Below, piece by piece: positions 8,844 to 36,008 of a DNA stretch of 64,000 bases. This stretch comes from Oxalobacteraceae bacterium (lineage in GTDB: Bacteria; Pseudomonadota; Gammaproteobacteria; Burkholderiales; Burkholderiaceae_D), in contig JAIXXN010000002.1 in assembly GCA_027490725.1 (NCBI GenBank), forward strand, positions 1 through 64,000. The letters are read 5' to 3'. The number at the start of each line of letters is the position of its first letter. The stretch's first letter is position 1. A model generated the notes under the pieces. That model was not told where the DNA came from. It did no database searches and worked only from the letters and a program-made list of their open reading frames with translations. A program made the position numbers and the translations under genes.

Positions 8844-8851
8844 GGAAAAAT

Positions 8852-8869: not shown

Positions 8870-8899
8870 GCAGCAGGCGCGCTACTGACAGTTCGGATA

Positions 8900-9868: not shown

Positions 9869-9899
9869 AGTAGTCTCCTAATAATGAATCGTCTAATTT

Positions 9900-13559: not shown

Positions 13560-13563
13560 GGTG

Positions 13564-14550: not shown

Positions 14551-14594
14551 AGCAAAGTCTCCAGATAGTTTTTTATGGTTCTTCTGGCACCCAT

Positions 14595-14659
14595 ACTATG
14601 AGAAACACAAATATCTATCCAATCACATTTTAGGATACTTCGATACCAAAACAGATATC
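14595..14659 (-). promoter_or_regulatory. Putative LTTR box and promoter of the ABC transporter operon (copy 1)
   Basis: On the minus strand, in order: the palindrome GATATC-N6-GGTATC (14659-14642), 19 nt, -35 TTGGAT (14622-14617), 16 nt, -10 CATAGT (14600-14595). A start of transcription near 14588 would give a leader of about 38 nt before ytfQ and place the palindrome centre near -62, the usual recognition site of an activating LTTR. The palindrome overlaps the stop codon of the upstream GH127 gene. Spacing is identical to the modules at 28684 and 35944. Confidence 0.7.
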
Positions 14660-17084
14660 AGCGCAGCAGTCGTACCCCATACAAACCACCCGCCAGCGAC
14701 CCTGCGCGCGCCTCGAAGCGCAGGGTCAGGTGCTGGCCCGTCAGCCACTCTGCCGGAATCTCGTAATCGGTGCTGTAGAACGCTGGCTGCATGGCCGTCG
14801 CGCCGCCATCCAGCGTCACTTCCGCCAGCAAACGGCCATTGATGCGGATATCGAAGCGCCGACCAGCATCCTGGCGCGCATAGGTCAGTCGCAGAGTACG
14901 CGCTTCCTGTTTCGCATCCTTCAGCACATAGCTGAACCAGCCCGTCGCATGGCGCCAGTGGCGTCCCTGATTCAGACCGGCATCCGCCCCCTCGCCACGG
15001 AAAGCATGATCGGACTCCGGCTGCTGTTCGCCCGGCGCCACCTGATCGATGGTGCGCGCATCCAGCGCCAGCCGCGCCGCCTCGTTCTGGCCGGCCTGTG
15101 CCTGCAAGACAGCCAGATTCGCCGGGGTGGCGTACTGCCAGTACATCATGTAACGAGCGTCATGCAGGCGGAAAAACGGGATAAACTCCGGATCGCCGCC
15201 CGCCCCGCCCTGCACCAGACCGGGTGCAGTAAAGGTCAGCGGCCGCCCCGCGACGGGACGGAAGCGCTGCATAAAGTCTTTGGTATCGCTCACCAGCATC
15301 GGCGCCGCCTCCAGCGGACAGACCGGTCCCTGCGCCACATGCCCCATGCGCGAATCATCGGCAAGGAAATTCAGCTGCTCGTTGGCGTAAGGCCGGGTTT
15401 TGGCGGCCAGTACCACCGGGCCGTGTAGCACCGCATAGTAGTTGGACTTATCGGGCATCTGCTCGAGACGCGTCGTCATCGGCAGACGTATTTCCACCTG
15501 ATCGCCATCGCGCCACTGGCGCGACAGGCTGACGTAATGCTTGGCGTCGATCCGGACAGCGACCGGTTTGCCGTTGACGCGCAGCGCCAGTGCGCCGGCC
15601 GCCACCCATGCCGGATAACGCACCCGCAGCGTGAACTTCGCCGTGCCGCCGATGCGCAGTGTAGTGCGCCCCTCATCCGGAAAAGCGCCGGACTGGGTGA
15701 TGCTCACGCCTTTCTGGCGCCATAGCAGTGTGGACGGGATAAACAGATTGACGTACAGGCTGTCGCCGCGATGGGCGTAAATGAATTCGCCGTACTTGGC
15801 GTGGCTCTCGATGCCGGAACCGACACAGCACCACATGCCTTTATCCGCCTGCGAATACACGCGGTAGTGATTCGGGCGCATCGGCGTGAAGTACACAAAA
15901 CCGCCGCTCTCCGGTCGCTGCGAGGACAATATATGGTTGTACAGCGCGCGCTCGTAGTAATCAGCATAGCTGGCGCGGCCATCGCGCTGGAACAGCAAGC
16001 CGGTGAGCTTGAGCATATTGTAGGTATTGCAGGTCTCCGGCCCTTCCACCTCGTTGATCATCGGTGAGAAATCCTGATCGGCGTGGAAGTGCTCTTTGAC
16101 GCTATTCCCGCCTATGGCGACGGTGCGATGGTCATGCACGGTTTGCCAGAAGAAGCGTGCGGCACGTTGCCAGTCCTCGCGCCCCGTCATTTCGCCGATG
16201 CGCTGGAAGCCGATGACCTTGGGAATCTGCGTGTTGGCATGCAGACCAGTGAGCTGGTCGCGCCCCTGAGCCAGCGGCTGCACCAGCGACGGCTGCGAAA
16301 AACGCACTGCCAGATCGAGATATTTGCGCTCGCCGGTGATCTGCGCAACATCGGCCAGCACTTCGTTCATGCCGCCGTGCTCACTGCGCAGCATGGCCTG
16401 CATCTGCGCTTCGCTCAGATGGCTGGTCAGCTCCAGCGCCCAGTCGGATAAGGCAATCAGCATGTCGCGCGCATCGCTATTGCCGCCATACTGGTAGGCG
16501 TCACGCAGACCGGCATAGACCTTGTGCAGGTTATACCAGGGTACCCATTTGCCGTTGACGGAAAAATTATCGGCGTGTAGTTCGCCGCGTGCAATGCCCT
16601 GCCATGCACTGCTGCCTTCCGGGATACCACCGATATAGCCATTGCCGTTCTGCTGCTGGCAGCGTTTGAGTTCGGCCACAAAATAGTTCAGGCGACGCAG
16701 CACTTCCGCATCGCCGGTCGAAGCAAACATCAGCGCCAGCGCCGACAGGTAATGGCCACCAAGGTGGCCATCGAGCCCGCTCGACTCCCAGTTGCCATAA
16801 CCGGGCTGCTTGGATGGAAGACCCGCCTCACGCAGGAATGGTGCTAGCAGCCGGTCCGGCTCCATCTCCAGCATATAGCGTAAATCGGTACGCTGGGCGT
16901 CCAGAAACGGACTCTCGCCCAGCCGCACATCGGCCAGCGGGAACAGCCGGATCGGCTGCTCCAGCGCTGCTGCAGCGGTAGCGGTGGTAGCGGCGGCAGC
17001 CATGCTTGGCATCAGCGCTAGCAGGGGCAACAGCATCAGGGGCAAACACAGCACCTGCTCCAGACGGCGCGCCAACTGCTTCAT
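14658..17084 (-). CDS. Beta-L-arabinofuranosidase, GH127/GH146 (DUF1680)
   Basis: An 808-residue protein with an N-terminal signal peptide (hydrophobic stretch of about 15 residues ending in MAAAA) and an (alpha/alpha)6 barrel. Family landmarks are SGLDGHLGGHYLSAL (about residue 100), NGYIGGIPEG, GPETCNTYNMLKLT (about 347) and MWCCVGSGIESHAKYGEF (about 418). The Glu and the Cys pair correspond to the zinc-liganded cysteine-nucleophile centre of GH127/GH146. Long C-terminal beta domains follow. These enzymes remove terminal beta-L-arabinofuranose. It overlaps the preceding GH43 gene in an ATGA and ends unit B. GH146 may be the better subdivision, since plant-wall-type enzymes of this length with signal peptides fall there. 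Confidence 0.88.
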   Translation of the reverse strand: MKQLARRLEQVLCLPLMLLPLLALMPSMAAAATTATAAAALEQPIRLFPLADVRLGESPFLDAQRTDLRYMLEMEPDRLLAPFLREAGLPSKQPGYGNWESSGLDGHLGGHYLSALALMFASTGDAEVLRRLNYFVAELKRCQQQNGNGYIGGIPEGSSAWQGIARGELHADNFSVNGKWVPWYNLHKVYAGLRDAYQYGGNSDARDMLIALSDWALELTSHLSEAQMQAMLRSEHGGMNEVLADVAQITGERKYLDLAVRFSQPSLVQPLAQGRDQLTGLHANTQIPKVIGFQRIGEMTGREDWQRAARFFWQTVHDHRTVAIGGNSVKEHFHADQDFSPMINEVEGPETCNTYNMLKLTGLLFQRDGRASYADYYERALYNHILSSQRPESGGFVYFTPMRPNHYRVYSQADKGMWCCVGSGIESHAKYGEFIYAHRGDSLYVNLFIPSTLLWRQKGVSITQSGAFPDEGRTTLRIGGTAKFTLRVRYPAWVAAGALALRVNGKPVAVRIDAKHYVSLSRQWRDGDQVEIRLPMTTRLEQMPDKSNYYAVLHGPVVLAAKTRPYANEQLNFLADDSRMGHVAQGPVCPLEAAPMLVSDTKDFMQRFRPVAGRPLTFTAPGLVQGGAGGDPEFIPFFRLHDARYMMYWQYATPANLAVLQAQAGQNEAARLALDARTIDQVAPGEQQPESDHAFRGEGADAGLNQGRHWRHATGWFSYVLKDAKQEARTLRLTYARQDAGRRFDIRINGRLLAEVTLDGGATAMQPAFYSTDYEIPAEWLTGQHLTLRFEARAGSLAGGLYGVRLLR

Positions 17085-18139
17085 TTCGGCGCCACTACGC
17101 TGCTCTGGTAACGATCGAGATCCGCCGCATCCACCACCGGCCAGCCTTGCGCATCCCAGCGCATCTCCATGACCTTCAGCTTTTGCAGGAAATTATCCGC
17201 CGTTTCGTAGGCATGCAGGACCAGATAGTCCTTGCCGTCGAAGCTGTAGGCACTGTTGTGCCCCAGCCCGCGCCATGCCGCGTTACCGCGTATCAGGGTG
17301 CTGCCGCCGCCTTGTTGCATGTCGATGCCATCTTTGTCGAGATATGGTCCGGTGACACTGCGCGAACGGCCGACGGCAAGGTAATAGGTACTATCGCCCT
17401 TGCGGCAGCAATAACCGAACGATACGAACAGATAGTAGTAATCGCCTTTGCGGAAGATGAACGGGGCTTCGATATCGTCCTTGCCGGCAGCCTGCGTTGC
17501 CGCGCCGGGCACTGCGGAACGGCTGGCAATGGCATGCCATTCCTGCGGCTCGGCTAGGGCGGTTCTGTCCTGATTGAGCTTGACCAGCTTCAAGCCACTC
17601 CAGAAGGAACCGAACGCCATCCACGCTGCGCCCTGGCCATCTTCGACGATATTCGGGTCGATGGCATTCCAGTTATCGCGCAGCGGCACCGACTGCAGTA
17701 CCAGCCCGCGATCCACCCAGCGATAGTCCGGTGAACCGGGGTTGAGTGTCTTATTCACCGTCACACCGATACCGGACGTGTTCTTGCCGAAGCCGGAGAC
17801 GGAGTAATACAGGTAGTACAGCCCCTTGTGAAAGTGCACATCGGGTGCCCAGACATGGCCATCAAAGGTGGGCGCAACACTGCGCGCCCACTCCGGTTGC
17901 TGCGTGAAGACCTGCCCTTCCGGGGTCCAGTCGCGCATGTTTTTCGAACTGTAGAAGGTGATCCCCGGCCCGGTACTGAACAGGTACCAGGTATCGCCCT
18001 CTTTGGTCATCACCGGGTCATGCACGCTGACCTGTGTGGCACTGCAGGCCAGCATGGTGCTCAGACCCAGTGCGAGCACGCCCAGTTTGGCTATCGCCTG
18101 TGCTCTGGCCAGCAAGGCGGTCTTGATTTCTTTGATCAT
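17081..18139 (-). CDS. GH43 arabinan endo-1,5-alpha-L-arabinosidase, lipoprotein
   Basis: A 352-residue lipoprotein. The lipobox LSTMLAC lies about 30 residues in, after a basic and hydrophobic leader, so the mature protein is membrane anchored. The propeller carries SVHDPVMTKEGDTWYLFSTG (base Asp), AIDPNIVED (second Asp) and DIEAPFIF (acid Glu). WAPDVHFHKGLYYLYYSVS and LGHNSAY are typical of arabinanases. The start is ATG 18139 with AGGGAAACAAG just upstream. The 25 extra codons further upstream lack a signal and are rejected. It lies 17 bp after another GH43 gene and overlaps the GH127 gene, so all three are made together. Expected role: internal cleavage of alpha-1,5-arabinan at the cell envelope. 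Confidence 0.9.
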   Translation of the reverse strand: MIKEIKTALLARAQAIAKLGVLALGLSTMLACSATQVSVHDPVMTKEGDTWYLFSTGPGITFYSSKNMRDWTPEGQVFTQQPEWARSVAPTFDGHVWAPDVHFHKGLYYLYYSVSGFGKNTSGIGVTVNKTLNPGSPDYRWVDRGLVLQSVPLRDNWNAIDPNIVEDGQGAAWMAFGSFWSGLKLVKLNQDRTALAEPQEWHAIASRSAVPGAATQAAGKDDIEAPFIFRKGDYYYLFVSFGYCCRKGDSTYYLAVGRSRSVTGPYLDKDGIDMQQGGGSTLIRGNAAWRGLGHNSAYSFDGKDYLVLHAYETADNFLQKLKVMEMRWDAQGWPVVDAADLDRYQSSVVAPK

Positions 18140-18156
18140 CTTGTTTCCCTGACTTT

Positions 18157-19794
<1,638 letters not shown>

Positions 19795-19798
19795 CGCA

Positions 19799-21364
19799 TC
19801 ACTCCACGGCTACCACAACAACGGCCTTGGCCGGAATTTGCACACTGACCTTGCCATCCACGCCAGTCGCGCTAAACGCTGCAGGCTTGATCGCCTGTGG
19901 CGCAGCAAAGGTATTGTGGGCATCCATGGTATTCGCGGTCAGTACGCGGCCGCGCAAGGCTTTAATCGCCACACCCGGCACGCTAACGGCAACCTCGGCC
20001 GCCGCGCGCGGATTGGTATTGACCAGCGCCAGATACAGCTTGCCGTCCGCAGCGCGTGCGGCCGAGGCGCTAATACCGGGGATGCTGGCACCATCGAGCG
20101 TGTATTGCTGATTGTTGGCCAGCGTCAGCGGCAACGAAGTCGCACCCTGGAACGGCACATACATTTCAAAGGCATGATAGGTGGGCGTCAGCAGCATCTT
20201 GTCCTTGTCGGTGATGATCATCGACTGCAGCACATTGACCATCTGGGCGATATTGGTCATGCGCACGCGATCAGCGTGGGCGTGGAAGATGTTGAAGTTA
20301 AGCGCCGCAACAACTGCATCGCGCAGGGTATTCTGCTGAAACAGGAAACCGGCATTGGTGCCCTTCTCGACGTCATACCAGGTACCCCATTCATCAACGA
20401 ACAGGCCCAGCTTCTTCTCCGGATCATGCTTGTCCAGGACCGCAGAGTTCTTGCGCATATGCTCTTCCATGCGCAGGGTGTTCGACAGCGTCGAGATCCA
20501 CTCCTGCTCGGCGAAGCCGGTGGCGGCGCCCTTGACTTCCCATTTACCGGTCGGGATGGTGTAGTAGTGGAAGCTGATGCCGTCGGTCTGCTGCTTGAGG
20601 CGCTTGCTGAGCACATCCGACCATGTCAGGTCGTTGTCGTTGCCGCCGCTGGCGATCATTTTCGGACGATACTGTGCGGGTGCGCGCAGGAAGGTTTCGA
20701 CATTGCGATACAGATCGGCGTAGTGATCCGGGCTCATATTGCCGCCGCATCCCCAGGCCTCGTTACCGATGGCGAAGTAAGCGACTTTGTAAGGCTGCTC
20801 GCGGCCGTTTTTGCGGCGCAGATTGGCCAGCGTCGATTTGCTGTCCGAGGTCATGTACTCGATCCACTCCGACATCTCCTGTGCGCTGCCGGTACCGAGA
20901 TTGCCGTTGACGTAGGCGTCCGCGCCGAGCAGTTCCACCAGATCGAAGAATTCGTGGGTGCCCACGGCATTCGATTCTTCCACGCCACCCCAGTTGGCAT
21001 TCACCTTAACCGGACGCTTCTCGCGCGCGCCGATGCCGTCTTTCCAGTGATATTCGTCGGCAAAGCAGCCGCCCGGCCAGCGCACCAGCGGCACGTGCAT
21101 GGCTTTGAGCGCGCCAACCACGTCGTTACGCCAGCCTTTGGTATTCGGGATTTTCGACTTCGGACCGACCCACAGGCCGCCGTAGATGCCGGTGCCGAGG
21201 TGCTCGGCAAACTGGCCGTAGATGTCTTTATTGATGACGGCACCGGGTTTGGCGGCATCGATAGTCAGCGTCACCGGTTCGCCAGCCAGCGCACTGCCCG
21301 CCAGCGGCAGCGAGAGCGCGAACGACAGCGCGAACGAGAGGGTGCCACGTGGGATATGGTTCAT
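19799..21364 (-). CDS. Alpha-L-arabinofuranosidase, GH51, exported
   Basis: A 521-residue enzyme that removes terminal alpha-L-arabinofuranose from arabinan and arabino-oligosaccharides. The signal peptide ends near SALA (residue 27). The (beta/alpha)8 domain contains [31 protein letters not shown] (acid/base Glu, about residue 201) and [12 protein letters not shown] (nucleophile Glu, about 324). The C-terminal alpha-L-arabinofuranosidase beta-sandwich domain ends the protein. AGGAGACAGAA precedes the ATG. The gene follows GH97 by 45 bp and precedes the linker GH43 gene by 4 bp. Many GH51 enzymes are cytoplasmic. The signal peptide here argues for a periplasmic enzyme that feeds the YtfQ-like importer. 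Confidence 0.95.
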
Positions 21365-21409
21365 TTCTGTCTCCTGTTTATTAGTGTGTTGGATGGACTG
21401 TATTTCTGC

Positions 21410-23347
21410 TCAGAGCAAGATGACGAAACCGCCGTGCGGCTTGATCGTCACCACAACTTTTCTACCTGCTGCGATGGGGGTCTGTTGGAAACTGCGTGCG
21501 GCCTGCCCGTCAGTAATCAGCACACCCTGCGCTGTACCGGCAAAAGACAGGTCGAGCGTGATGCGCTTTTCCACATCGGTGGCGTTGATGCCAGCGATAT
21601 ACCAGTGCTTGCCGGCGCGGCGTGCCATCACTACGTGCTGACCGGGATAGCCATCCAGCAGGCGGCTGTCGTCCCAGCTGCGTGGCAATTCCTGCAGCAG
21701 CGCCTTGACGTATGCGGGGACACTCGCCATGCCTTCCGGGGTTTCGGCAAAATGCTGGATGCCGGACAAGTACAGCACCGAGGTCGCAAGTTCGAAGCCA
21801 TTGCTGGCGCTACGCCGGATATTGGGAATCTTGCCAAACACCATCGGTGTGAAATCCATCGGATCGAACAGGTTGCGGGTGAACGGCAGCATGGCCGCGT
21901 GAGCCGGCATTCTGTCCTCGTCGACCTGCTCGAAAGTGGTGAATTCCATGCCGCGTATCGCTTCCACGGTCATCAGATTCGGCCAGGTGCGGCTCCAGCC
22001 ACGTGGCAGCGTGGCGCCGTGGAAGTTCACCAGCAGTCCAGCGTCGGCCGCATCGCGCAGGATCTCGACGTAATAGGCGATCATCGACTGACCATCACCA
22101 CCGAAGAAATCGATCTTGACGCCTTTCACGCCCATCGCGCGCAAGCGGGCGAATTCTGCCACCCGCTGCTGGTGTGTCAGGAGCTGGCTTTTGGGCGAAT
22201 ATTCGGTGCTATTCCATGCGCCGGACGAGTTGTACCAGAGCAGAATGCCGACTTTCTTCGAGGCGGCATAGTCCACCAGTTCGCGCACCTTGTCGTAACC
22301 GATTTTGCGATCCCAGTCGGCGTCGATCAGGGTGTAATCCCAGTGCATATCGGCGGCGTAGTCGATAAACTTTTTCTGTACATCGTAGACCGTGGCATCG
22401 TCCTTGAGCAGCGCCCAGCTCCACGCGGCATGGCCGGGGCGCACCAGTGCGGCATCAAACGGCTGGGCCGGTGCGGCAAGGTCAGTGCCCAGCGTCGATT
22501 CGGTGAGCGTTTTCAGGGAGCCCAGTGCCAGCAAACGCCACGGCGTCGTGAGGGGGGCGCTACCGGTAACGTCGGCCAGCAAGCCACCGCCCGGGTAGAC
22601 TTCTGCGGGCATCGGATTCGCGATGCGATACACCGCACCATCCGCTTGCGGCGCCAGACGCGAGGCCTGGAAGCTGCCGTCCATGCCCGCTTCCGAGAGT
22701 GCTAGCCAGGTATCGCCCGTCCTAAACAGCGCCGGGAAGACCCAGCCTGCCGGCGAGGGTGACGCGCTGCCCGCCGCAATATCCATCTGGTAGTGTTCCT
22801 CGTACGAGGGATTTGTGCCGTTCCAGCCAGTCTGCGCGACTGACATGGGCTGCAACCATGCACGACTGGCAGCGGGCAGCGCGAAGCTGGTGTGCTCCTG
22901 CAGCAGTTTTTTGCGCGCCAGCGTGGCATCGGTAACCCGATAGCGGAACGCCACGCCATCGTTCGAGACGCGGAAGGTCACCTCCATGGTCTGCTGCTGC
23001 GCATTGCGCACGGTGGTCGTCTGTTCGTTGGCGCGATAGCTAATGCTGCGCCGTTTGCCGGTGGCCATCTCGTAATGCTCGCGGATCGGGCGTGGCTGGC
23101 TGCGCGCCACCACGCTCAGGCCGCTGGAGAGTTGCGCCCCTTCCAGCTGCAAACCGAGCTGCGAGGCCAGTAACACCGGCTTACCGTCGCGCGTCACCGT
23201 GTACTGCAGGCGCCCACCCTGGTCCGTGCTGACAGCAACCCGGATATGCCGATCGGGACTGCCTAAGTCAGCTGCGTTGGTCGTCGCTGCAGCCATCACA
23301 TTTGCACAGACGGCCAGAGTCAGCACGGAGAATCCTGTCTTCACCAT
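21410..23347 (-). CDS. Glycoside hydrolase family 97, exported (retaining type)
   Basis: A 645-residue enzyme with a signal peptide (cleavage near NAADL), an N-terminal beta-super-sandwich domain (about 30-290), a catalytic (beta/alpha)8 barrel (about 300-560) and a C-terminal sandwich. [26 protein letters not shown] (about residue 413) and [11 protein letters not shown] (about 460) are visible. The Asp at KIDF matches the nucleophile of retaining GH97 members, not the Glu arrangement of inverting SusB-type glucosidases. GH97 retaining enzymes include alpha-galactosidases and a beta-L-arabinopyranosidase. The arabinan context makes the latter attractive, but it is inference. AAGGTGAG precedes the ATG. 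Confidence 0.9.
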
Positions 23348-23372
23348 GTTCTCACCTTGAATTGGAGTGATA

Positions 23373-23401
23373 CCACCCGCCGCCAGTGGCGCTGCAGGTG
23401 G
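23373..23401. promoter_or_regulatory. Stem-loop between SDR and GH97 genes
   Basis: CCACC (23373-23377) pairs with GGTGG (23397-23401) around GC-rich partly complementary inner sequence in the 100-bp gap. No T run follows, so it is not an ordinary terminator. It may be a processing or mRNA-stability element separating the catabolic and hydrolase parts of unit B. Confidence 0.3.
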
Positions 23402-23447
23402 CGATCAGTACTACGGAAGTGGCTAAATCAGCGCGTGAGGCAGCGGC

Positions 23448-24215: not shown

Positions 24216-24296
24216 ACAGTCTCCGTTAAAGCTGATATGTTTTTGTTGTTTGATCGAAAACGGCACCTTGCGGCGCCGTGGCAGTTCAGTTGCAGC

Positions 24297-26854: not shown

Positions 26855-26875
26855 GGTATCTCCGGATTTCTATAG

Positions 26876-28618: not shown

Positions 28619-28683
28619 GCATATCTCCTCAGTATGTTCTTGTACAGGGGCCTGCTTGTCATGCCCCTGCATCGATAAGCCAT

Positions 28684-28748
28684 ACTAAGTTGTACTGAGA
28701 TATCTTTCCAATAAATTATTATTCGACTTCGATACCAAAAACAGTATC
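28684..28748 (-). promoter_or_regulatory. Putative LTTR box and promoter of the catabolic/hydrolase operon (copy 2)
   Basis: Perfect palindrome GATAC-N8-GTATC (28731-28748), then on the minus strand 19 nt, -35 TTGGAA (28711-28706), 16 nt, -10 CTTAGT (28689-28684). A predicted transcription start near 28677 puts the palindrome centre near -62 and gives a leader of about 59 nt. The -10 flank (TAGTATGG) is identical to that of copy 1. Confidence 0.72.
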
Positions 28749-28770
28749 ACAGACATCCTCGATCACCGCA

Positions 28771-29910
28771 TCAATCAGCAACGCTGAAGCGGTAAGCCAT
28801 GGCCGTGCTGTAGCGCGTGCCGGGGCGCAGAATGGTGCTGGCAAAGTGGGCGTGATTCGGCGCATCGGGGAAATGCTGAGGTTCGAGGCAGAAGCCAGTA
28901 CGGAAATCGTAGCAGCGCCCTTTGCCGCGCACCGTCTCCGAGAGGAAGTTACCGCTGTAAAACTGCACGCCCGGCTCCTGCGTCCACACTTCCAGCACCC
29001 GTCCGGAGACCGGCTCATGGACGCGCGCCGCCAGTGCCAGCGCGCCGTCCTGTGGCCGGTTGAGCACAAAATTATGGTCGTAGCCGCTGCCGTAGCCCAG
29101 TTGCTCGTCAAGCACACCGATACGGGCGCCGATCGCATGCGGGGTGCGGAAGTCGAAGGGGGTATTTTGTACGGCACGTAATTCGCCGGTGGGAATCAGG
29201 CCGGCATCCACCGGCGTGTAGGCATCTGCGGGAATGGTCAGCTGATGGGACAGAATGTCGGCAGGCCCCGCCTCGCCCTGCCCCGCCAGATTGAAATAGG
29301 CGTGATTGGTCAGGTTGACGGGGCTGGCCTGGTCCGTGCTGGCGTGGAAAGTGATCTCTAAACCGTTATCGTTAGTCAGTTCATAGCGCACCGTGACGTC
29401 GAGATTGCCGGGATAGCCCTGCTCGCCATCCGGACTCAGATAACGCAGTATCAATCCGGCCGAGGTGGGCGTGGTGAACGTCTCGGCGCGCCACAGTTTG
29501 CGGTGGAAACCCTGCGTGCCGCCATGCAGGTGATTGATACCATTGTTGACATCAAGCTGATAGCGCTTGCCATCGAGCTCGAACTGGCCGCGTGCGATAC
29601 GGTTGCCATAACGGCCGATTAGCGCGCCAAAATAATGCGATTCGCCCATATAGGCGGCTGCATTGTCGAAACCGAGGCAGACATCGGCCAGCTTGCCATC
29701 CCGATCCGGCACATGCACCTCTGTGATCACGCCACCCAGATCGCTGATACGCACCAGCATCCCGTTCGCGTTGCTCAGCGTGTAGAGCGTGGCTTCCCGG
29801 CCGTCAGGCAAGGCTCCAAACGGTGCCGAAACGATTGCCGGCAGCTTCGCCTGATTTTCTTGATTTAACTGGTTTGACTGGTTTAACTGGTTTGACTGGT
29901 TTGCATGCAT
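28771..29910 (-). CDS. Aldose 1-epimerase (galactose/arabinose mutarotase)
   Basis: A 379-residue beta-sandwich epimerase interconverting alpha and beta anomers. Family motifs: GALIGRYGNRIARGQF (Arg in substrate site), NNGINHLHGGTQGFHRKLW (catalytic His region), NLTNHAYFNL (second His) and GVQFYSGNF (C-terminal Glu/Gln region). ATG 29910 with GAGGAA upstream is chosen. The 46 upstream codons read through the intergenic gap. Residues 3-21 are an odd Asn-Gln-rich tract built from 9-bp repeats, followed by the normal fold from about residue 24. It lies 52 bp after the unknown gene and closes unit A. Arabinose released as the furanose form would need mutarotation before oxidation. Confidence 0.93.
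   Translation of the reverse strand: MHANQSNQLNQSNQLNQENQAKLPAIVSAPFGALPDGREATLYTLSNANGMLVRISDLGGVITEVHVPDRDGKLADVCLGFDNAAAYMGESHYFGALIGRYGNRIARGQFELDGKRYQLDVNNGINHLHGGTQGFHRKLWRAETFTTPTSAGLILRYLSPDGEQGYPGNLDVTVRYELTNDNGLEITFHASTDQASPVNLTNHAYFNLAGQGEAGPADILSHQLTIPADAYTPVDAGLIPTGELRAVQNTPFDFRTPHAIGARIGVLDEQLGYGSGYDHNFVLNRPQDGALALAARVHEPVSGRVLEVWTQEPGVQFYSGNFLSETVRGKGRCYDFRTGFCLEPQHFPDAPNHAHFASTILRPGTRYSTAMAYRFSVAD
29851..29903. repeat. 9-bp tandem repeat in the epimerase N-terminus
   Basis: On the minus strand four AACCAGTYA units in a row (alternating C and T) followed by diverged AATCAAGAA and AATCAG. They encode NQS NQL NQS NQL NQE NQ. The alternation means the pair (18 bp) was itself duplicated. 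Confidence 0.9.
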
Positions 29911-29962
29911 TACTAGGTTCCTCGATGATTGCGATCCGTAGAAGCTGACCATGGCAGCAGCC

Positions 29963-30550
29963 TCAGTCGATATCTTCCAGCAGGTCGGTGAGCCGCCGGT
30001 CTTTCGGCGTACGCCGTTCCAGCACTGTAGTTGTTTGGTGATCGACATGTTCGATCAGCGTCACGGCCGCCGTAAGCGCCTGCCCCATCGCTCTGGCGGC
30101 GCTAGTGAGCGCATCGGCCGCAGAAGGCGGCGGCGTATTGACGCGTTCCGTGGCTCTGGCGCGCAGCCGTTTGGCATTGACCCAGTCACGCTCGCCCGGC
30201 AAGCGTAACCACAGGTCGCGCCAGGCCTTGCGTCCATCCCCAGCGATCGTCAAGGTCATCGCACGCGGCGACACCGAAGCCCCGCCATAAATTAGCTGAT
30301 CGCCGACCACCCGCGCAAAATAGGAGCGCTCGAGATACTCCATACGCACGCGCGTGCCATCTGGCAAAAACAACTGCTTCCATTGATAGCCGTGCAGCAC
30401 TTCCGCCCCGGCCTTTTCCTGAGCAATCCACGCCTTGATGGCCGCATCAAGCGCCTCGGTTTCCGACACCGTGCTAGCGCTCATACGGAGATAGTCCTGC
30501 AGCAACTGCAGCGAGTGCGGTGCCAGTGGATTCGTGTGTGGCGCATTCAT
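29963..30550 (-). CDS. Uncharacterised protein within the arabinan locus
   Basis: A 195-residue soluble protein that I do not recognise. There is no signal peptide or membrane segment. An N-terminal helical region is followed by a beta-rich patch (YQWKQLFLPDGTRVRMEYLERSYFARVVGDQLIYGG), a tryptophan-rich basic stretch (KAWRDLWLRLPGERDWVNAKRLRARATER) and a C-terminal helix ending in acidic DLLEDID. The basic WLRLP/NAKRLRARA region could bind nucleic acid, but no known fold is evident. ATG 30550 follows AGGGGAACGAG. An alternative start at 30736 would read through a repeat array and is unlikely. It sits between cytoplasmic GH43 (207-bp gap) and the epimerase, and its leader contains the decamer palindrome at 30565-30675. 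Confidence 0.6.
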   Translation of the reverse strand: MNAPHTNPLAPHSLQLLQDYLRMSASTVSETEALDAAIKAWIAQEKAGAEVLHGYQWKQLFLPDGTRVRMEYLERSYFARVVGDQLIYGGASVSPRAMTLTIAGDGRKAWRDLWLRLPGERDWVNAKRLRARATERVNTPPPSAADALTSAARAMGQALTAAVTLIEHVDHQTTTVLERRTPKDRRLTDLLEDID

Positions 30551-30564
30551 ACTCGTTCCCCTGT

Positions 30565-30675
30565 CTCGTTTGTACTCGTTTGTGCTGGTTCTGTCTCGTT
30601 TGAGCGGCGATAGCGGCTTAGGTTCAAACGAGACAAAACGAGTACAAACGAGACGAAACCAGACATCAAAACGAG
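30565..30675. repeat. Palindromic array of 10-bp repeats in the leader of the unknown gene
   Basis: Left half: four 10-bp units on the plus strand, CTCGTTTGTA, CTCGTTTGTG, CTGGTTCTGT, CTCGTTTGAG (30565-30604). Right half: the same unit in reverse orientation at 30623-30662 (TTCAAACGAG, ACAAAACGAG, TACAAACGAG, ACGAAACCAG), plus one more CAAAACGAG after a 3-nt shift. The halves pair as a 19-bp perfect inverted repeat (30563-30581 with 30636-30654) and an inner 11-bp one (30593-30603 with 30624-30634). The 10-bp period matches a helical turn. Confidence 0.9.
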
Positions 30676-30710
30676 ACAGTTTGCGCCACAGTGGCCTGCG
30701 CGCGTACCCC

Positions 30711-30716
30711 AATATA
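30711..30716 (-). promoter_or_regulatory. Candidate -10 element for the unknown gene
   Basis: TATATT on the minus strand within TATATATTGG, in the 207-bp gap between the cytoplasmic GH43 stop and the unknown gene. A -35 partner is poor (T-rich stretch 16 nt upstream). It would give a leader of about 155 nt carrying the decamer palindrome. Confidence 0.3.
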
Positions 30717-30757
30717 TACCCATCGGAGTGCCACAAAAAACCGCAAAAAAATCCTGT

Positions 30758-31711
30758 TTAAACCAGCGAAGGCTTGCCAAACACCGGCATGCCCTGCGCA
30801 TCCCACTGCAGCGCTTTCACATAAGTGTGACGATCCGGATTCCACAGCGGGTCACCGACAATTTCCGTGTAGGTACGGGCGTGATAGACCAGCAGCACCG
30901 TGGCGCCATCTTCGGACACGGTAAAACTATTATGCCCGGGACCATACACCCCGTGCTCGAAGCAGGTTTGCAGCACCGGCTGTGGCGACTTGGTCCATGC
31001 TGCAGGGTCGAGCAGATTCGCGTTCTCGTCGGCCCACAGCAGCCCCATGGCATAGTTTTCGTCGGTCGCACTGGCCGAATAACTGATAAAAATCTTGCCA
31101 TGCTTTTTCAGCACGGACGGACCTTCATTGACCCAGAAACCGCGGATTTCCCAGTCAAACTCGGGCTTACTGAGCATCACGGGCGGACCGCCAAGCTGCC
31201 ACGGCGTTTTCATCGGCGCGATATACAGATTCGAATTACCTTCGATTGCCACATCCTTCTGCGCCCACAGGTAGTACAGCTGCCCCTTGTGGGTGAAGGT
31301 GGTCGCATCCAGACAGAAGGTATCGATGCCGGTATCGATCTGCCCCATGAACTCCCACTCGCCTTCCAGCGGATTCGCGTGAGAGTTACGGATCGCATAC
31401 ATCCGGTGCTGGAACAGCCTGTTTTTTATCTCGCGGCTGGGCGCCGCCGCAAAATACACATACCACGCACCGTCATTGAAGTGCAGCTCCGGGGCCCACA
31501 GCAACTCGCTATAAGGCCCCGTTTCCGGCTTATGCCAGACATCGACTTTCTGCGCATCCACCAGCCCGGCCAGCGTACTGGCGCGACGCAGTTCGACACG
31601 ATCATACTGCGGCACCGATGCCGTGAAGTAGTAATAGCCGTCCGTGTGACGGTAGATATGGGGATCGGCGCGCTGTTCGATCAGCGGCTTGAGAACTTGT
31701 ACAGTTTCCAT
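30758..31711 (-). CDS. Cytoplasmic GH43 exo-arabinofuranosidase
   Basis: A 317-residue GH43 protein without signal peptide. It begins METVQVLKPLIEQRADPHIYRH, where the Asp after RA is the general base. CLDATTFTHKGQLYYLWAQ holds the second Asp and GFWVNEGPSVLKKHGK the acid Glu. GPGHNSFTV is the typical late propeller motif. The RADPHIYRHTDGYYYFTASVP opening matches exo-1,5-alpha-L-arabinofuranosidases (subfamily 26 type). It lies 41 bp after the GPH transporter gene, so a cytoplasmic enzyme acting on imported arabino-oligosaccharides is the natural reading. GAAGAGC precedes the ATG. Confidence 0.88.
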   Translation of the reverse strand: METVQVLKPLIEQRADPHIYRHTDGYYYFTASVPQYDRVELRRASTLAGLVDAQKVDVWHKPETGPYSELLWAPELHFNDGAWYVYFAAAPSREIKNRLFQHRMYAIRNSHANPLEGEWEFMGQIDTGIDTFCLDATTFTHKGQLYYLWAQKDVAIEGNSNLYIAPMKTPWQLGGPPVMLSKPEFDWEIRGFWVNEGPSVLKKHGKIFISYSASATDENYAMGLLWADENANLLDPAAWTKSPQPVLQTCFEHGVYGPGHNSFTVSEDGATVLLVYHARTYTEIVGDPLWNPDRHTYVKALQWDAQGMPVFGKPSLV

Positions 31712-31752
31712 GCTCTTCGCAACTCTCGATTAATTGTAAATTTATTGACTTT

Positions 31753-33105
31753 TTAATGACTGGCGTAGCCCAGCTTCCGCATTTCCTGTTTCACCTGCGC
31801 ATAATAATCATCGCTAATCCGGTACTTAAACATCAGCAAGCCCATAATCAGGTGGAAGCAGCCCGGAATCACCGTCAGCATCAGCGCAATCCCGCTCATG
31901 GACAGCGCCGACTGAGCCTGATTCGGCACGTACTGGAAATAGGTCAGCAACACACCCACCATGCCACCGGCCACCGCCATCCCGGCCTTCTGGCAGATCG
32001 AAATTCCGCCGAACGCCAGACCGGACACGCGCTTACCGCTTTGCACTTGACCATAATCGATGGTCTCCGCTATCGAGGACCAGAACACCGGCGCATGCAG
32101 ATCGACCACGAAGGACAGCGTGAAATACAGCACATAGGCCAGCATGATGTCACCAGGCTTGACCAGATAATAGATCGCGATACTCAGCGCAAACACCAGC
32201 AACTGGGTATTGCGGAACAGCTTGACCTTGCAATAGGTTTTGGTAATCCAGGTCGAGGCGATCATCGACAGTATCGCTGCCACCACCCCCAGCGACAGAA
32301 AAGTCGACTGGACCGACACGCCACCACCCAGATAGTATTTGGCGTAATACAGTGCCACCGAGCCGCGGATCACATAGCCTACCGTGCCGGTCACGCAGGC
32401 ACCGGCCAGCAGCAGCCACTGGTCATTTTTCATCAGTAATTTGAACTGGGCCAGCAGCGAAGTACGCTCGACTTTGTGCACCACCCGTTCGGTGGTGCCG
32501 AATACGCAGAACAGGAACAGCAGCACACCCATCGCCGCCATAACACCCATGGCAGCCTGATAGCCGGCGGCAGCTTTGCCCTCGCCCCAGTATTCGGCCA
32601 GCACTGGCACCACGATGGTGACCATGAAGGCGCCAATTTTGGCGAAGAACAGCCGGTAGCCATTGGCCGACAGACGCTCCTGCGGATCGCTGGTCAGGCC
32701 GCTAATGAGGGAGATATACGGCACGCCCACCCCGGACGTCATCACCGTCATCAGGATATAGGTGGCATACGCCCAGATCAGCTTGGCGCTATAGGCCCAG
32801 TCCGGCGTCGTGAACACGAAAAACACACTGATTCCGTAAGGCAGCGCCAGCAGCAGCAACCACGGACGGTAGCGTCCCATGGCAGTGGCAAAGCGGTCAG
32901 TCAGCTGGCCCACCGCCAGATCCGATAAGGCGCCGGCAAATTTCACCAGCACAAACAGCAAGGCCAGATCCTGGGTGTGCAAGCCGTAAATGTCGGTGTA
33001 GAAGAAGGTAATAATCAGCATCATCGACGAGATGACGACATTGAGCGCCATATCGCCAGCACCAAAGGCGACTTTTTCAAGCGTGGTAAGTTTCGGGTTT
33101 TGCAT
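31753..33105 (-). CDS. GPH-family sugar transporter (MFS), probable arabino-oligosaccharide importer
   Basis: A 450-residue inner-membrane protein with 12 predicted segments of the glycoside-pentoside-hexuronide:cation symporter family. Motifs: EKVAFGAGDMALN near the start, GALSDLAVGQLTDRFATAMGRYRPWLL (the family's loop 2-3 signature) and PYISLISGLTSDPQERLSANGYR. It uses a cation gradient to import glycosides. ATG 33105 with TTGAGG upstream is used. An upstream extension is rejected. The start lies only 15 nt past a terminator-like hairpin at 33119-33160, leaving no room for its own promoter, so expression depends on read-through from the TonB receptor gene. The downstream cytoplasmic GH43 fits import of oligosaccharides. 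Confidence 0.9.
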   Translation of the reverse strand: MQNPKLTTLEKVAFGAGDMALNVVISSMMLIITFFYTDIYGLHTQDLALLFVLVKFAGALSDLAVGQLTDRFATAMGRYRPWLLLLALPYGISVFFVFTTPDWAYSAKLIWAYATYILMTVMTSGVGVPYISLISGLTSDPQERLSANGYRLFFAKIGAFMVTIVVPVLAEYWGEGKAAAGYQAAMGVMAAMGVLLFLFCVFGTTERVVHKVERTSLLAQFKLLMKNDQWLLLAGACVTGTVGYVIRGSVALYYAKYYLGGGVSVQSTFLSLGVVAAILSMIASTWITKTYCKVKLFRNTQLLVFALSIAIYYLVKPGDIMLAYVLYFTLSFVVDLHAPVFWSSIAETIDYGQVQSGKRVSGLAFGGISICQKAGMAVAGGMVGVLLTYFQYVPNQAQSALSMSGIALMLTVIPGCFHLIMGLLMFKYRISDDYYAQVKQEMRKLGYASH

Positions 33106-33118
33106 GGCCTCAATCCAG

Positions 33119-33160
33119 TAAAAAAACAGGGGTGCCGTCCGACTCTCGGCACAGCACCCC
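33119..33160 (-). terminator. Intra-operon terminator/attenuator between TonB receptor and GPH transporter
   Basis: On the minus strand GGGGTGC (33160-33154) pairs with GCACCCC (33135-33129), and a TTTTTTT tract follows at 33126-33120. An alternative inner stem (TGCCG with CGGCA) overlaps the same arms. Position: 105 nt past the receptor stop and 15 nt before the transporter start. Confidence 0.75.
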
Positions 33161-33220
33161 ATCAGACTACTCAGTCCCGCTACAGCTTACTGTAAGGACA
33201 CAGTGCACGCTCATGCACTA

Positions 33221-33268
33221 TCAAACTGATGCACAGTCAAGCTGATGCACGGTCAAGCTGATGCTTAG
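33221..33268. repeat. Three 16-bp tandem repeats at the receptor stop codon
   Basis: Units TCAAACTGATGCACAG (33221-33236), TCAAGCTGATGCACGG (33237-33252) and TCAAGCTGATGCTTAG (33253-33268), with a partial diverged copy just before. The last unit includes the TonB receptor stop codon (33265-33267). 16 bp is not a multiple of three, consistent with a non-coding position. Confidence 0.9.
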
Positions 33269-35889
33269 TTTCTCCAGCGCAGCGACACACCGACCACACG
33301 GTCATAGCGACGCACATCACGTGGTGCAGCGGGCGTACCGTGGTAATCGTGGTAGGCGAAGTTCAGCAGATTATTCGCATCAACACTGATGGTCAGATCT
33401 TTGCCCAGTTTGTACGACACGGAAGCGTCCAGGAACTTGATCGGGTCGACTACCAGATCGCAGCAATTGCGGTAGTTGTACTCGGCCACGAACTTGTCGC
33501 GCCAGCTGTAGGCCAGACGGGCCGACAGTTTATCGTTTTCATACAGACCGACCAGATTGTACGAGTTCTTCGACATGCCAGGGAAAGTCGGCGTGCTCGC
33601 GCTGCCATCTTCGTTCTGCAAGCCACCTTTCATATAGGTGTAGTTGGCTTGCATGCCCAGACCACTCATCCAGCCCGGCAGCATGGTGAAGAACTGCTGA
33701 TACGAGATCTCGCCACCTTGCAGCTTGGCTTTACCGACGTTGTACGGACGGTTCACCAGATAAGTCTTGCCGTTGATGGTTTCGTTACGCTGCTTCCACA
33801 TCTCGTAGTCAGTGAAGCGGTGTTCGAATACGGTCGCGGTCAGCGAACTGGCTGGTGCGAAATACCATTCCAGCGAGACATCGACGTTGGTACTCTGGGT
33901 CGGACGCAGGTTCGGGTTGCCGGCGCTACCAGTGGCCAGCGTGGTGGCGGTCGAATCATGCAGCACCAGACCCGGATTGAAGTCACCGAAGTTGGCACGC
34001 TGGATGGCCTTACCGGCGACCAGACGCGATTGCAGATTATCGGCCCACTTGGCACGCAGGGAAGCACTTGGCAGGACGTTGTTGGTGGTGCTATCGCTGT
34101 AAGCCGGAGTAATCGTGCTAGCGCCGGTGGCCGAGGTCACCTGGGTATAGCCCGCCACTTTCTGGTTCGTCTGGACGTAACGCACACCGGCACTACCGTC
34201 GACCGGAATACTGCCCACATCAAAGCCGAATTTCCCCTTCAGGTACAGCGCGCTGGTGGTTTCCGTATCCGAGTAGTAGGACAGCGGATCGTCCAGACTG
34301 CGACCTTTCAGACCCAGCGCGGTACGCAGTTCCTGGGTGTTATTCAGCAGATAGCTCTGGCACGGTGCATAGAACTGGTTCATGCCGTAGTTGCCACCAG
34401 TGGACTGGGTCACGCAGTTGAGCGAGCTCGACAGCGAAGTGACAGGAATTGCCGCCACTTTATTGAAGTTGTTCAGCTCGTGCACATAGGTCGCGAAACG
34501 CTTGGCAACGCGCACGCCGCCGGCCAGTTCTTTCAGGAAGCCATGGTTTTCCGGTTCCCAGATCACGTCGCTACGCCAGTCGGTCGCACGACCGGACGAA
34601 GCATTGTGGTTATCCCAGAACACATCGGTAACCCATTTGTTCGGGCTGGTCATATCGACGCCCGGATATTGCAGGAAACCGCCACCGTCACGCACCGCCG
34701 CCGAAATGTTGAGCGGACCTGGCAGCACGGCATCGAGAATCGGGTTTTCCTGGCTGTAGTTACTGACGGTACGCGCCAGTTCCGTGGTGACCCGCAGCGT
34801 CGGCGTCAGGTTGTAACGGCCGCCGATGGCGCCCTGATGGCCGGTCGACTCGTCGCGACGTCCCTGCGTCGAGCTCAGCGTGAACAGATCGGTCGCGCCG
34901 TTTTTGCTGATCGAATCCAGATACTTGGTGCCGGACTGGTTAGTCACGGTGGAACCGGTCTGGAACCATGGCAGCACGCCGACAAAGAACACGCTCGACG
35001 AATCATGATCGATCTTGGTGCTAAAGCCTTCCGCATACAGTTCCAGATCCGAGTTCGGACGCCATTGTGCCGAGACATTACCGGCCCAGCGTTTGCGGTC
35101 GCCCTGCCCCATCACGCGGCCCATCGAATCGGCGCCCTGGGTGTTGCCATACAGGGGCCAGCTGATCGGTGGCGCAACCCACGCCGTTTCATCGTGGTAA
35201 CGACCACGCTGATAGGAAACACCCGCCAGCAGACCCACGTCGCCATAAGCGGTTTTCCAGCGGTCCGAAATCATGCCGGACAGATTCGGATCGGTCGAAC
35301 CGGCTTTATCGCGGTGCTCGACGCGCGCATTGACGGCCGTCTGCTGGCCCTTGAAATCGAATGGACGGTTGGTGCGCACGTCGATCACGCCGGCCACGCC
35401 GCCTTCGTTCATGTCGGCGCCCTGCGATTTATAGACATCCACGCGCTGCAGCATGGCCACTGGCACATCGGCCAGGAACAGGCTACGACCGGCGGCGGTG
35501 AACATTTCACGGCCGTTCAGGGTGGTCACGATGCCGCCCAGACCGCGAATGATGACCTGACCGGCTTCGCCGTTGTCACGGATGATCTGCACGCCCGGTA
35601 CCCGGCCCAGAATTTCGGCGACGTTTTTATCGGGGAATTTGCCGATATCGTCGGCCACGATGGAGTCGATCACCTGCTCGGCGTTCTGTTTGATGTACTG
35701 GGCGCTCTGCGCCGCTTTACGCACGCCGCTGACGTTCACCACCGGGCTACCGTCGGCACCCAGGGTTTCCTGCGCCAGCACGGGGAAAGCGCTCATCAGG
35801 CCGGCAGCGGCGAGTACCGCCACGCCGGTTTTCAGGGCAAAGCGGTGCTTATTCTGGGACATGGAAGTCCCGACTGTGTAGTCGTTCAT
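33265..35889 (-). CDS. TonB-dependent receptor for arabino-oligosaccharides
   Basis: An 874-residue outer-membrane receptor. The signal peptide is in FALKTGVAVLAAAGLMSAFPVLAQ, the TonB-box-like segment is PVVNVSGVRKA, and the plug domain has SIVADDIGKFPDKNVAEILGRVPGVQIIRDNGEAGQVIIRGLGG. A 22-strand barrel ends in VVGVSLRWRN (aromatic/Asn end). The IGKFPDKNVAE plug is typical of proteobacterial carbohydrate receptors that work without SusD. AGGAGACGT lies directly before the ATG. It is the first gene of unit A, preceded by the box and promoter at 35944-36008. Arabinan fragments are the inferred substrate from the co-transcribed genes. Confidence 0.94.
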   Translation of the reverse strand: MNDYTVGTSMSQNKHRFALKTGVAVLAAAGLMSAFPVLAQETLGADGSPVVNVSGVRKAAQSAQYIKQNAEQVIDSIVADDIGKFPDKNVAEILGRVPGVQIIRDNGEAGQVIIRGLGGIVTTLNGREMFTAAGRSLFLADVPVAMLQRVDVYKSQGADMNEGGVAGVIDVRTNRPFDFKGQQTAVNARVEHRDKAGSTDPNLSGMISDRWKTAYGDVGLLAGVSYQRGRYHDETAWVAPPISWPLYGNTQGADSMGRVMGQGDRKRWAGNVSAQWRPNSDLELYAEGFSTKIDHDSSSVFFVGVLPWFQTGSTVTNQSGTKYLDSISKNGATDLFTLSSTQGRRDESTGHQGAIGGRYNLTPTLRVTTELARTVSNYSQENPILDAVLPGPLNISAAVRDGGGFLQYPGVDMTSPNKWVTDVFWDNHNASSGRATDWRSDVIWEPENHGFLKELAGGVRVAKRFATYVHELNNFNKVAAIPVTSLSSSLNCVTQSTGGNYGMNQFYAPCQSYLLNNTQELRTALGLKGRSLDDPLSYYSDTETTSALYLKGKFGFDVGSIPVDGSAGVRYVQTNQKVAGYTQVTSATGASTITPAYSDSTTNNVLPSASLRAKWADNLQSRLVAGKAIQRANFGDFNPGLVLHDSTATTLATGSAGNPNLRPTQSTNVDVSLEWYFAPASSLTATVFEHRFTDYEMWKQRNETINGKTYLVNRPYNVGKAKLQGGEISYQQFFTMLPGWMSGLGMQANYTYMKGGLQNEDGSASTPTFPGMSKNSYNLVGLYENDKLSARLAYSWRDKFVAEYNYRNCCDLVVDPIKFLDASVSYKLGKDLTISVDANNLLNFAYHDYHGTPAAPRDVRRYDRVVGVSLRWRN

Positions 35890-35943
35890 ACGTCTCCTGT
35901 GTTATCTGTTTTATAGTGTTTTTGCAGCTACCTCGGAAATCAT

Positions 35944-36008
35944 CTTAGGGTCTGAGCAAAAAACAAACCAATCAATTTTTTCCGGTTTTCGATACCAAAA
36001 AAGATATC
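35944..36008 (-). promoter_or_regulatory. Putative LTTR box and promoter of the TonB receptor operon (copy 3)
   Basis: GATATC-N6-GGTATC (36008-35991 on the minus strand), 19 nt, -35 TTGGTT (35971-35966), 16 nt, -10 CCTAAG (35949-35944). A predicted transcription start near 35937 gives a leader of about 48 nt. Element spacing equals that of copies 1 and 2 to the nucleotide, although the sequence between elements is unrelated. Confidence 0.7.

What the first reader, a model, noticed from the sequence alone, without database searches (positions are those of the whole stretch)
14595..36008. Three arabinan operons share one promoter layout with an invariant palindrome-to-promoter spacing
At 14642-14659, 28731-28748 and 35991-36008 the same 18-bp palindrome (GATAC-N8-GTATC type) occurs. 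On the minus strand each is followed by exactly 19 nt, TTGGAT/TTGGAA/TTGGTT, exactly 16 nt, and CATAGT/CTTAGT/CCTAAG. The sequence between these blocks is unrelated, so spacing is under selection. The palindrome centre falls near -62 of the predicted starts, the usual site for an activating LysR-type regulator. Each copy heads one unit: TonB receptor, catabolic/hydrolase, ABC transporter. Together they define a regulon with the LysR gene at 7905-8843 as the obvious candidate.
Basis: partly seen in the sequence, partly recalled or inferred. Interest (0 to 1): 0.75.

Follow-up and report, generated by a model that had tools for sequence, protein, structure and literature searches.

The report
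Arabinose regulator's shared promoter switch
Three neighbouring sets of genes for eating plant arabinan carry the same control switch, built to a fixed ruler, and related bacteria suggest strongly that it belongs to a sugar-sensing LysR regulator whose gene lies in the same cluster.

Summary
Three palindromes, each 19 nt from TTGG, stand at the stated places; the 22-bp core occurs exactly three times in the 5.14-Mb genome. The ruler is conserved: a search allowing gaps of 8-30 matched 143 of 392 family genomes, and 148 of the 150 rows listed have gap 19.

The LysR gene is very probably the regulator. Boxes occur in 182 of 187 family genomes with it (strict or tolerant pattern) and in 5 of 205 without it (strict pattern; the tolerant one, run on 49 of these, found 1). 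Outside the family a box stands beside the lysR homologue in 9 of 14 loci, to Azospirillum, Sinorhizobium and Halomonas. The protein resembles GbpR, regulator of chvE; its exact branch is unresolved.

New: a palindrome at 8852-8869 sits 8 nt before lysR's start codon, as in 51 of 80 relatives (9 nt in 3). lysR thus ends an operon it probably activates and carries its own operator. Binding, inducer and start sites are untested.

The parts
14642..14659 (-). LysR recognition palindrome before ytfQ (GATAT-N8-GTATC); it begins inside the stop codon of the GH127 gene
14617..14622 (-). TTGGAT: -35 element, probably overlapped by the activation site (TTGGATAGATAT), ytfQ promoter
14593..14598 (-). TAGTAT: -10 element, ytfQ promoter, 18 nt after TTGGAT
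28731..28748 (-). LysR recognition palindrome before the L-arabinonate dehydratase operon (perfect dyad)
28706..28711 (-). TTGGAA: -35 element / activation site, dehydratase promoter
28682..28687 (-). TAGTAT: -10 element, dehydratase promoter
35991..36008 (-). LysR recognition palindrome before the TonB-dependent receptor
35966..35971 (-). TTGGTT: -35 element / activation site, receptor promoter (GATAT half-site not visible here)
35942..35947 (-). TAAGAT: -10 element, receptor promoter
7905..8843 (-). LysR-type regulator resembling GbpR (312 aa), last gene of the ytfQ unit
8852..8869 (+). fourth palindrome GATATCACAATCGGTATT, 8 nt before the lysR start codon: proposed autoregulatory operator
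8896..8901 (+). GATATC half-site 44-49 nt into the operator frame, the place of the conserved half-site in the promoters
7905..14550 (-). unit 1: ytfQ-ytfR-ytfT-yjfF, GH43, lysR
14658..28618 (-). unit 2: arabinonate-dehydratase-like enzyme, AraD1/GguC family, aldehyde dehydrogenase, SDR, GH97, GH51, two GH43, GH127
28771..35889 (-). unit 3: TonB-dependent receptor, GPH symporter, GH43, an ORF without a Pfam match, aldose epimerase

Best explanation
The three promoters form a regulon of the LysR-type protein at 7905-8843, a GbpR-like regulator. Shown by sequence: an even palindrome (ATAY-N8-RTAT) centred near -64.5 of the predicted starts, exactly 19 nt from ATTGG, a GATAT half-site about three helical turns from the palindrome's right arm in two of the three copies, and a TANNAT -10 element. 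Inferred: a LysR tetramer holds the palindrome (recognition site) with one dimer; with inducer, the second dimer settles on the ATTGGA..GATAT activation site that overlaps -35 and recruits RNA polymerase. The fixed 19 nt is the footprint geometry of that tetramer. The inducer is probably L-arabinose or a close metabolite, with galactose possible. The regulator is the last gene of the ytfQ unit, so activation raises its own level; its own palindrome 8 nt before the start codon probably limits it. The output is coordinated outer-membrane uptake, arabinan breakdown, inner-membrane transport and non-phosphorylative arabinose catabolism.
For: Spacing: 392 genomes searched with gap 8-30; 143 match, the reversed-pattern control is zero in the genome table, and 148 of the 150 listed rows have gap 19, the other 2 gap 20 (list truncated). 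58 of 58 distinct sequences in held loci have 19 among gaps 0-60, though some of those loci were fetched with the pattern. With the palindrome and -10 positions left free, 63 of 67 ytfQ promoters have 19 as sole best gap and 2 more tie. Regulator: strict box in 138 of 187 lysR-bearing and 5 of 205 lysR-lacking genomes, Fisher p about 5e-56 (genomes are not independent); a tolerant pattern finds boxes in 44 of the other 49 lysR genomes and in 1 of 49 lysR-lacking ones tested. In two other genera the box lies between a divergent lysR ortholog (65-68% identity) and a porin gene. Out of sample: a matrix trained on family boxes gives a clear outlier beside the lysR homologue in 8 of 14 distant loci with gap 19, and in a ninth (Halomonas) with gap 20. 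A LysR-family arabinose regulator is independently predicted in Halomonas (PMC5507952, passages). The ATA-N10-TAT geometry matches the PcaQ site, placed 65.5 bp upstream in PMC5002191 (passages). A palindrome of the same kind precedes lysR in 55 of 81 upstream regions; shuffles give at most 1.
Against: No binding, expression or start-site data. Co-occurrence alone cannot separate lysR from the ytfQ operon it travels with; that separation rests on the varied target genes. 5 of 187 lysR genomes show no box even with the tolerant pattern, and 5 genomes have a box without a detected lysR. In 3 of 14 distant loci, including one annotated gbpR, no box was found, 2 more scored weakly, and one needs a gap of 20. 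In L191 a second, weaker match (-7.7) lies before a MarR gene. The receptor promoter lacks the GATAT half-site, so the activation-site assignment is partial. TANNAT was built into the pattern; only one search tests it freely. The tree does not resolve whether the window protein and the chvE-linked proteins form a clade apart from PcaQ.
Confidence: 0.9

Rival explanations
1. The box belongs to another transcription factor that also controls the lysR gene, and the LysR protein binds elsewhere.
For: No direct binding evidence. The palindrome is even, whereas the classic LysR box is T-N11-A (passage). In the window lysR is co-directional, not divergent.
Against: The target genes change between genera (ytfQ, dehydratase, porin, chvE) while a lysR homologue stays beside the box. 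The PcaQ LysR site has the same even geometry. Among the window proteins scanned, the only other transcription factor seen is a LytTR response regulator at 3362-4105 (not every ORF was scanned).
Confidence: 0.06
2. The three copies are recent duplications of one promoter, so the equal spacing is shared descent and not selection.
For: The 22-bp core is nearly identical in the three copies of this genome.
Against: Flanks and most of the spacer differ within the window. The same spacing holds in diverged promoters of many genera and of Alphaproteobacteria. Length changes are rare: gap 20 in 2 of 150 listed rows and in Halomonas.
Confidence: 0.02
3. The protein acts at these promoters mainly as a repressor, released by sugar.
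For: The direction of control cannot be read from sequence; LysR proteins can repress.
Against: A site centred near -64.5 with a second half-site by a poor -35 element is the usual layout of activation by LysR proteins (family knowledge; PMC5002191 passages).
Confidence: 0.05
4. The palindrome before lysR is a relic of an ancestral divergent promoter and has no present function.
For: As a promoter on the antisense strand it scores only -20 to +9 where it passes the -20 threshold, and divergent layouts exist in other genera.
Against: It is kept at 8 nt in 51 of 80 relatives, and the 55 palindromes found comprise 27 distinct sequences with 30 distinct spacers, so letters change while position stays.
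Confidence: 0.3

Closest known systems
GbpR (LysR-type regulator of chvE/sbpA; Agrobacterium, Azospirillum, Sinorhizobium)
   Same: The same box lies before chvE in Azospirillum and S. meliloti records beside a lysR homologue, and before genes passing the ChvE model in two family genera. The window has a gene passing the GguC/AraD1 model. Papers describe GbpR control of chvE in the presence of sugars (PMC4086400 passage) and gbpR beside sbpA and an arabonate dehydratase (PMC3141670 passage).
   Different: 43.8% identity to the A. brasilense protein, 34.7% to that of S. meliloti. Here the targets are a YtfQ-type transporter, a TonB receptor and arabinan hydrolases, and the gene is last in its own unit. 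The tree leaves the grouping unresolved. The Agrobacterium protein itself was not compared.
AraR, a LysR-family regulator predicted in Halomonas
   Same: Predicted from genome context to control divergently transcribed L-arabinose genes, with its own DNA motif (PMC5507952 passages). A Halomonas homologue (41.7% identity) has a divergent box of the same plan with gap 20.
   Different: A prediction for Halomonas only; its motif is in a supplement that I could not see. I did not test whether the Halomonas plasmid gene examined here is that AraR.
PcaQ (LysR-type regulator of protocatechuate genes)
   Same: Best NCBIfam match (193 bits); same even ATA-N10-TAT site. A weak best-in-locus match with the same 19-nt gap lies upstream of pcaD.
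   Different: Below the PcaQ cut-off of 303.8 bits, about 30% identity to Rhizobium PcaQ, and PcaQ controls aromatic-acid genes.
Classical LysR-type activators (OccR, CatR, BenM type)
   Same: Recognition site near -65, second site by -35, often divergent (partly recalled; passages).
   Different: Even rather than odd palindrome, and a co-directional operon-distal regulator gene.

Membership tests
LysR-type transcriptional regulator | N-terminal HTH_1 and C-terminal LysR substrate-binding domain | tested here: met
   Pfam HTH_1 E 1.6e-19, LysR_substrate E 2e-33
LysR-type regulon | recognition site centred near -65 of target promoters | tested here: inconclusive
   Centre at -64.5 from predicted -10 elements; starts not mapped
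LysR-type regulon | T-N11-A motif | tested here: not met
   The palindrome is even, T-N12-A; PcaQ shares this exception
LysR-type regulon | regulator gene divergent from a target | tested here: inconclusive
   Not in the window; present in relatives
GbpR | forms a clade with chvE-linked LysR proteins, apart from PcaQ | tested here: inconclusive
   First tree, no outgroup: window and chvE-linked groups on one side, PcaQ, Phaeobacter and Methylobacterium rows on the other, support 83/55. With two outgroup LysR proteins the forks are open; holding the clade together is neither rejected nor shown, p-AU 0.54
GbpR | controls a chvE-type sugar-binding protein gene | tested here: inconclusive
   Box before chvE-type genes in relatives; the window's own genome shows only its three boxes
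GbpR | responds to L-arabinose, D-galactose or D-fucose | not testable with these tools
   Needs expression or binding assays; the inducer list is recalled
PcaQ | reaches the curated TIGR02424 score | tested here: not met
   193.2 bits against 303.8

The most novel reading that the evidence does not exclude
GbpR-like LysR regulators use one promoter grammar of about 70 bp that is shared by Alpha-, Beta- and (with one extra base) Gammaproteobacteria: even palindrome, 19 nt, ATTnG with a GATAT half-site, TANNnT. In Oxalobacteraceae the regulator gene has become the last gene of an operon it activates and carries its own operator fixed 8 nt before its start codon, where a ribosome site would normally lie. 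The same protein would then give positive feedback through the operon and a roadblock or start-site block at its own gene.
Probability: 0.4. Interest if true: 0.6.

Novelty: new member of a known kind. Interest (0 to 1): 0.5.

Why it matters
It gives GbpR-like sugar regulators a precise DNA signature that predicts their regulons from sequence, puts outer-membrane uptake, arabinan breakdown and arabinose catabolism under one switch, and offers a clean case in which fixed spacing can be tested as the geometry of a LysR tetramer. The site before lysR makes a double-feedback circuit directly testable.

Tried and rejected
Loose palindrome counts (GATAY-N8-GTATC with 2 mismatches) were uninformative: 70 against 42 expected. 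The 22-bp pattern with 2 mismatches in 392 genomes mixed real boxes with chance hits (99 genomes, with some reversed-control hits), so the spaced pattern replaced it. A search of 160 genomes drawn from the order with the strict pattern gave the window's own genome and two others with gaps of 27 and 11, which I take as chance, plus 1 reversed-control hit; the matrix reaches further. Sigma-70 and terminator scans around lysR found nothing. A relaxed own-genome search returned the three boxes plus 15 matches with 2-3 mismatches, against 7 in the reversed control; I take the 15 as chance. A search of solved structures gave only general LysR relatives. Papers: in open-access searches (two searches listed 20 of 134 and 20 of 54) I saw titles and the starts of abstracts; none names this box or an Oxalobacteraceae LysR arabinose regulon. 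On re-checking, passages of PMC5507952 do predict a LysR-family AraR with a motif in Halomonas, so a LysR arabinose regulator as such is not new. Subscription papers and supplements were not searchable.

My first claim of a GbpR clade was weakened to 'GbpR-like' after a second tree with outgroups.

Limits: one search is in-sample, since the matrix was trained on loci of the same family; searches are out of sample, with 5 and 3 shuffles per locus. The gap-20 reading for Halomonas came after seeing the fixed-gap result. In one search, 7 of 80 loci have no hit of 0 or more (L006, L032, L039, L065, L072, L075, L078); the gene map shows no ytfQ in any of them. The 49 lysR-lacking genomes were G366 and low handle numbers, not a random draw from the 200 with neither. 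The column fractions printed are not used: truncated rows stayed in the denominator. L039's region in that call is spurious (no ytfQ start on the contig). The Shine-Dalgarno comparison is thin: lysR 1 of 80, ytfQ 9 of 9, GH43c 7 of 8, but also ytfR 0 of 19, ALDH 0 of 5, abnA 0 of 2, so absence before lysR is only suggestive.
Full report
WHAT IS THERE. The window lies in an Oxalobacteraceae-type genome: its LysR protein is 96% identical to those of Duganella qianjiadongensis and D. fentianensis and 99% to a Burkholderiaceae MAG. On the minus strand three units follow one another: a TonB-dependent receptor, a GPH-type symporter, a GH43 enzyme and an aldose epimerase (28771-35889); a dehydratase close to the L-arabinonate dehydratase model (829 bits against an 882 cut-off), an AraD1/GguC family protein (522 bits, cut-off 340), an aldehyde dehydrogenase, an SDR dehydrogenase and GH97, GH51, GH43 and GH127 enzymes (14658-28618); and ytfQ-ytfR-ytfT-yjfF, a GH43 enzyme and lysR (7905-14550). 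The content fits arabinan breakdown and the non-phosphorylative arabinose route (pathway knowledge).

THE BOX. At each unit's head stands TGATAY-N3-TTTTGGTATCGAA. It occurs exactly three times in the genome; the only other matches within three mismatches are two with three, and the reversed control gives one. In the window 3 were found against 0.02 expected.

IS THE SPACING SELECTED? I searched 392 family genomes with GATAY-N8-RTATC, a free gap of 8-30, TTGG, 20 nt and TANNAT. 143 genomes match and the reversed control is zero in the genome table. Of the 150 rows listed (the list is truncated), 148 have gap 19 and 2 have gap 20 (recount); one of the two looks like a real box with one more A in an A-run, the other like chance. 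In held loci 58 of 58 distinct sequences have gap 19 when 0-60 are allowed, though some of these loci were fetched with the pattern itself. A freer test used 68 upstream regions of ytfQ: 67 have ATTGGW; the best palindrome among gaps 6-33 lies at 19 alone in 63, tied in 2, elsewhere in 2; TANNAT follows TTGGNN by 18 nt in 57 and by 19 nt in 7. So the palindrome-to-TTGG distance is nearly invariant and the -35/-10 spacer slightly less so. Relatives also keep an A-tract and ATTGGA..GnTAT, which suggests that the LysR activation site overlaps -35 (inference). In the window this half-site is present in the ytfQ and dehydratase promoters and absent in the receptor promoter.

WHO BINDS? In the same 392 genomes, lysR orthologs (E up to 1e-110) are in 187. 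Box and lysR together 138, box alone 5, lysR alone 49, neither 200; Fisher p about 5e-56 (species are related, so this is not a clean probability). With a longer, tolerant pattern 44 of the 49 lysR-alone genomes show boxes, against 1 of 49 genomes with neither, so 182 of 187 lysR genomes carry boxes by one pattern or the other. Co-occurrence could come from lysR travelling with ytfQ. What separates them is that the targets change. In genera g27 and g29 the box lies between a divergent lysR ortholog (65-68% identity) and another gene; in the four loci looked at this gene reads as a porin, confirmed by Pfam in the three tested. In genus g6, whose ytfQ promoter matches that of the Janthinobacterium loci, a further box stands before a ChvE gene (L145, 559 bits, cut-off 460; L099 by eye) and in one genome before a 2-keto-3-deoxygalactonokinase-family gene (L102); in genus g39 a box stands before a ChvE gene (L144, 523 bits). 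In Comamonadaceae, Paraburkholderia, Diaphorobacter and Caballeronia records the lysR homologue is divergent from a ytfQ-like or IlvD/Edd gene; in two Azospirillum records it stands between arabinose-type genes and chvE; in S. meliloti it is divergent from chvE.

OUT-OF-SAMPLE TEST. A weight matrix from 68 distinct family boxes (34 effective) was scanned over 14 plasmid-borne loci of distant homologues (30-55% identity). In 8 (L181, L182, L183, L184, L186, L191, L193, L194) the best match is a clear outlier upstream of the neighbouring target, or, in unannotated L194, just upstream of lysR on the other strand: scores +3.6 to +29.7 against shuffled maxima of -21 to -59. L183 and L193 have three sites each, before chvE, ytfQ and the lactonase-led operon; two of those in L183 score just below zero. 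When the gap is varied from 16 to 22, 19 is the best in all 8, and a ninth locus, Halomonas L188, shows an outlier (+10.1, divergent from lysR) at gap 20. L187 (PcaQ, before pcaD) and L189 are weak best-in-locus matches at gap 19; L185 (annotated gbpR), L190 and L192 show none. In L191 a second match at -7.7 lies before a MarR gene.

WHAT KIND OF REGULATOR. By identity the protein is nearer to chvE-linked LysR proteins (A. brasilense 43.8%, S. meliloti 34.7%) than to Rhizobium PcaQ (about 30%). A first tree of 38 proteins put the window and chvE-linked groups on one side with weak support (83/55); with two outgroups the order is open and the clade is neither rejected nor shown (p-AU 0.54). The best NCBIfam model is PcaQ, well below its cut-off. 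The even geometry ATA-N10-TAT matches the PcaQ site in PMC5002191, which gives its centre as 65.5 bp upstream (passages). Papers describe GbpR as the LysR regulator of chvE in the presence of sugars (PMC4086400), GbpR, GguA/B and SbpA in A. brasilense on wheat roots (PMC4042000), a gbpR-sbpA-arabonate dehydratase cluster in Roseobacter (PMC3141670), a gene gbpR SMb20896 in S. meliloti (PMC11387232), and a LysR-family AraR predicted to control arabinose genes in Halomonas (PMC5507952); all were seen as passages only. I therefore call the window protein GbpR-like. That it answers to arabinose is inferred.

A FOURTH SITE. Upstream of lysR itself, at 8852-8869, lies GATATCACAATCGGTATT, 8 nt before the start codon. 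Of 81 upstream regions (window plus 80 loci; L006 is nearly the window itself) 55 have an ATAY-N8-RTAT palindrome 7-13 nt before the start; 200 shuffles give a mean of 0.035 and a maximum of 1. Measured to the in-frame ATG it is 8 nt in 51 and 9 nt in 3 of 80, 41 nt in 1 and absent in 25; the 55 palindromes comprise 27 distinct sequences and 30 distinct spacers. A GATATC half-site recurs at the offset seen in the promoters. A Shine-Dalgarno-like motif precedes lysR in 1 of 80 loci, but other genes of the operon also lack it. In L014, L018 and L026 the sequence leaves no room for the palindrome (my reading). I propose that this is lysR's own operator: the regulator is the last gene of an operon it activates and limits itself there. 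Whether it acts by roadblock, at an internal promoter, or is a relic of a divergent ancestor is open.

VERDICT. It is a new member of a known kind, well supported by comparison, with a testable double-feedback twist.

Noticed in passing
window 8852-8869 and 8896-8901: A LysR-type palindrome 8 nt before the lysR start codon, with a second half-site, found in most relatives examined; it occupies the usual ribosome-binding region.
   Followed up: yes
L188 5880-6003 (Halomonas plasmid): A divergent box of the same plan with a gap of 20 instead of 19 beside a 41.7% identical LysR homologue.
   Followed up: partly
window 14658-14660: The ytfQ promoter palindrome begins within the stop codon of the GH127 gene, so operator and coding sequence overlap.
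   Followed up: no
window 28616-28618: Probable true start codon of the dehydratase, after GAGGAG; the longer ORF start at 28672 lies about 10 nt after the -10 element.
   Followed up: partly
G338 contig C31 5872-6107; G298 contig C3 574201-574484; G212 contig C1 4365122-4365391: Pairs of boxes facing away from each other about 105-155 bp apart in other genera, suggesting divergent double promoters.
   Followed up: no
window 37736-41932: A 1398-aa protein with an AMP-binding domain and a hexapeptide-repeat match, perhaps a small peptide-synthetase-like enzyme.
   Followed up: no
window 42577-43461 and 49526-50956: Two proteins with beta-lactamase-family domains.
   Followed up: no
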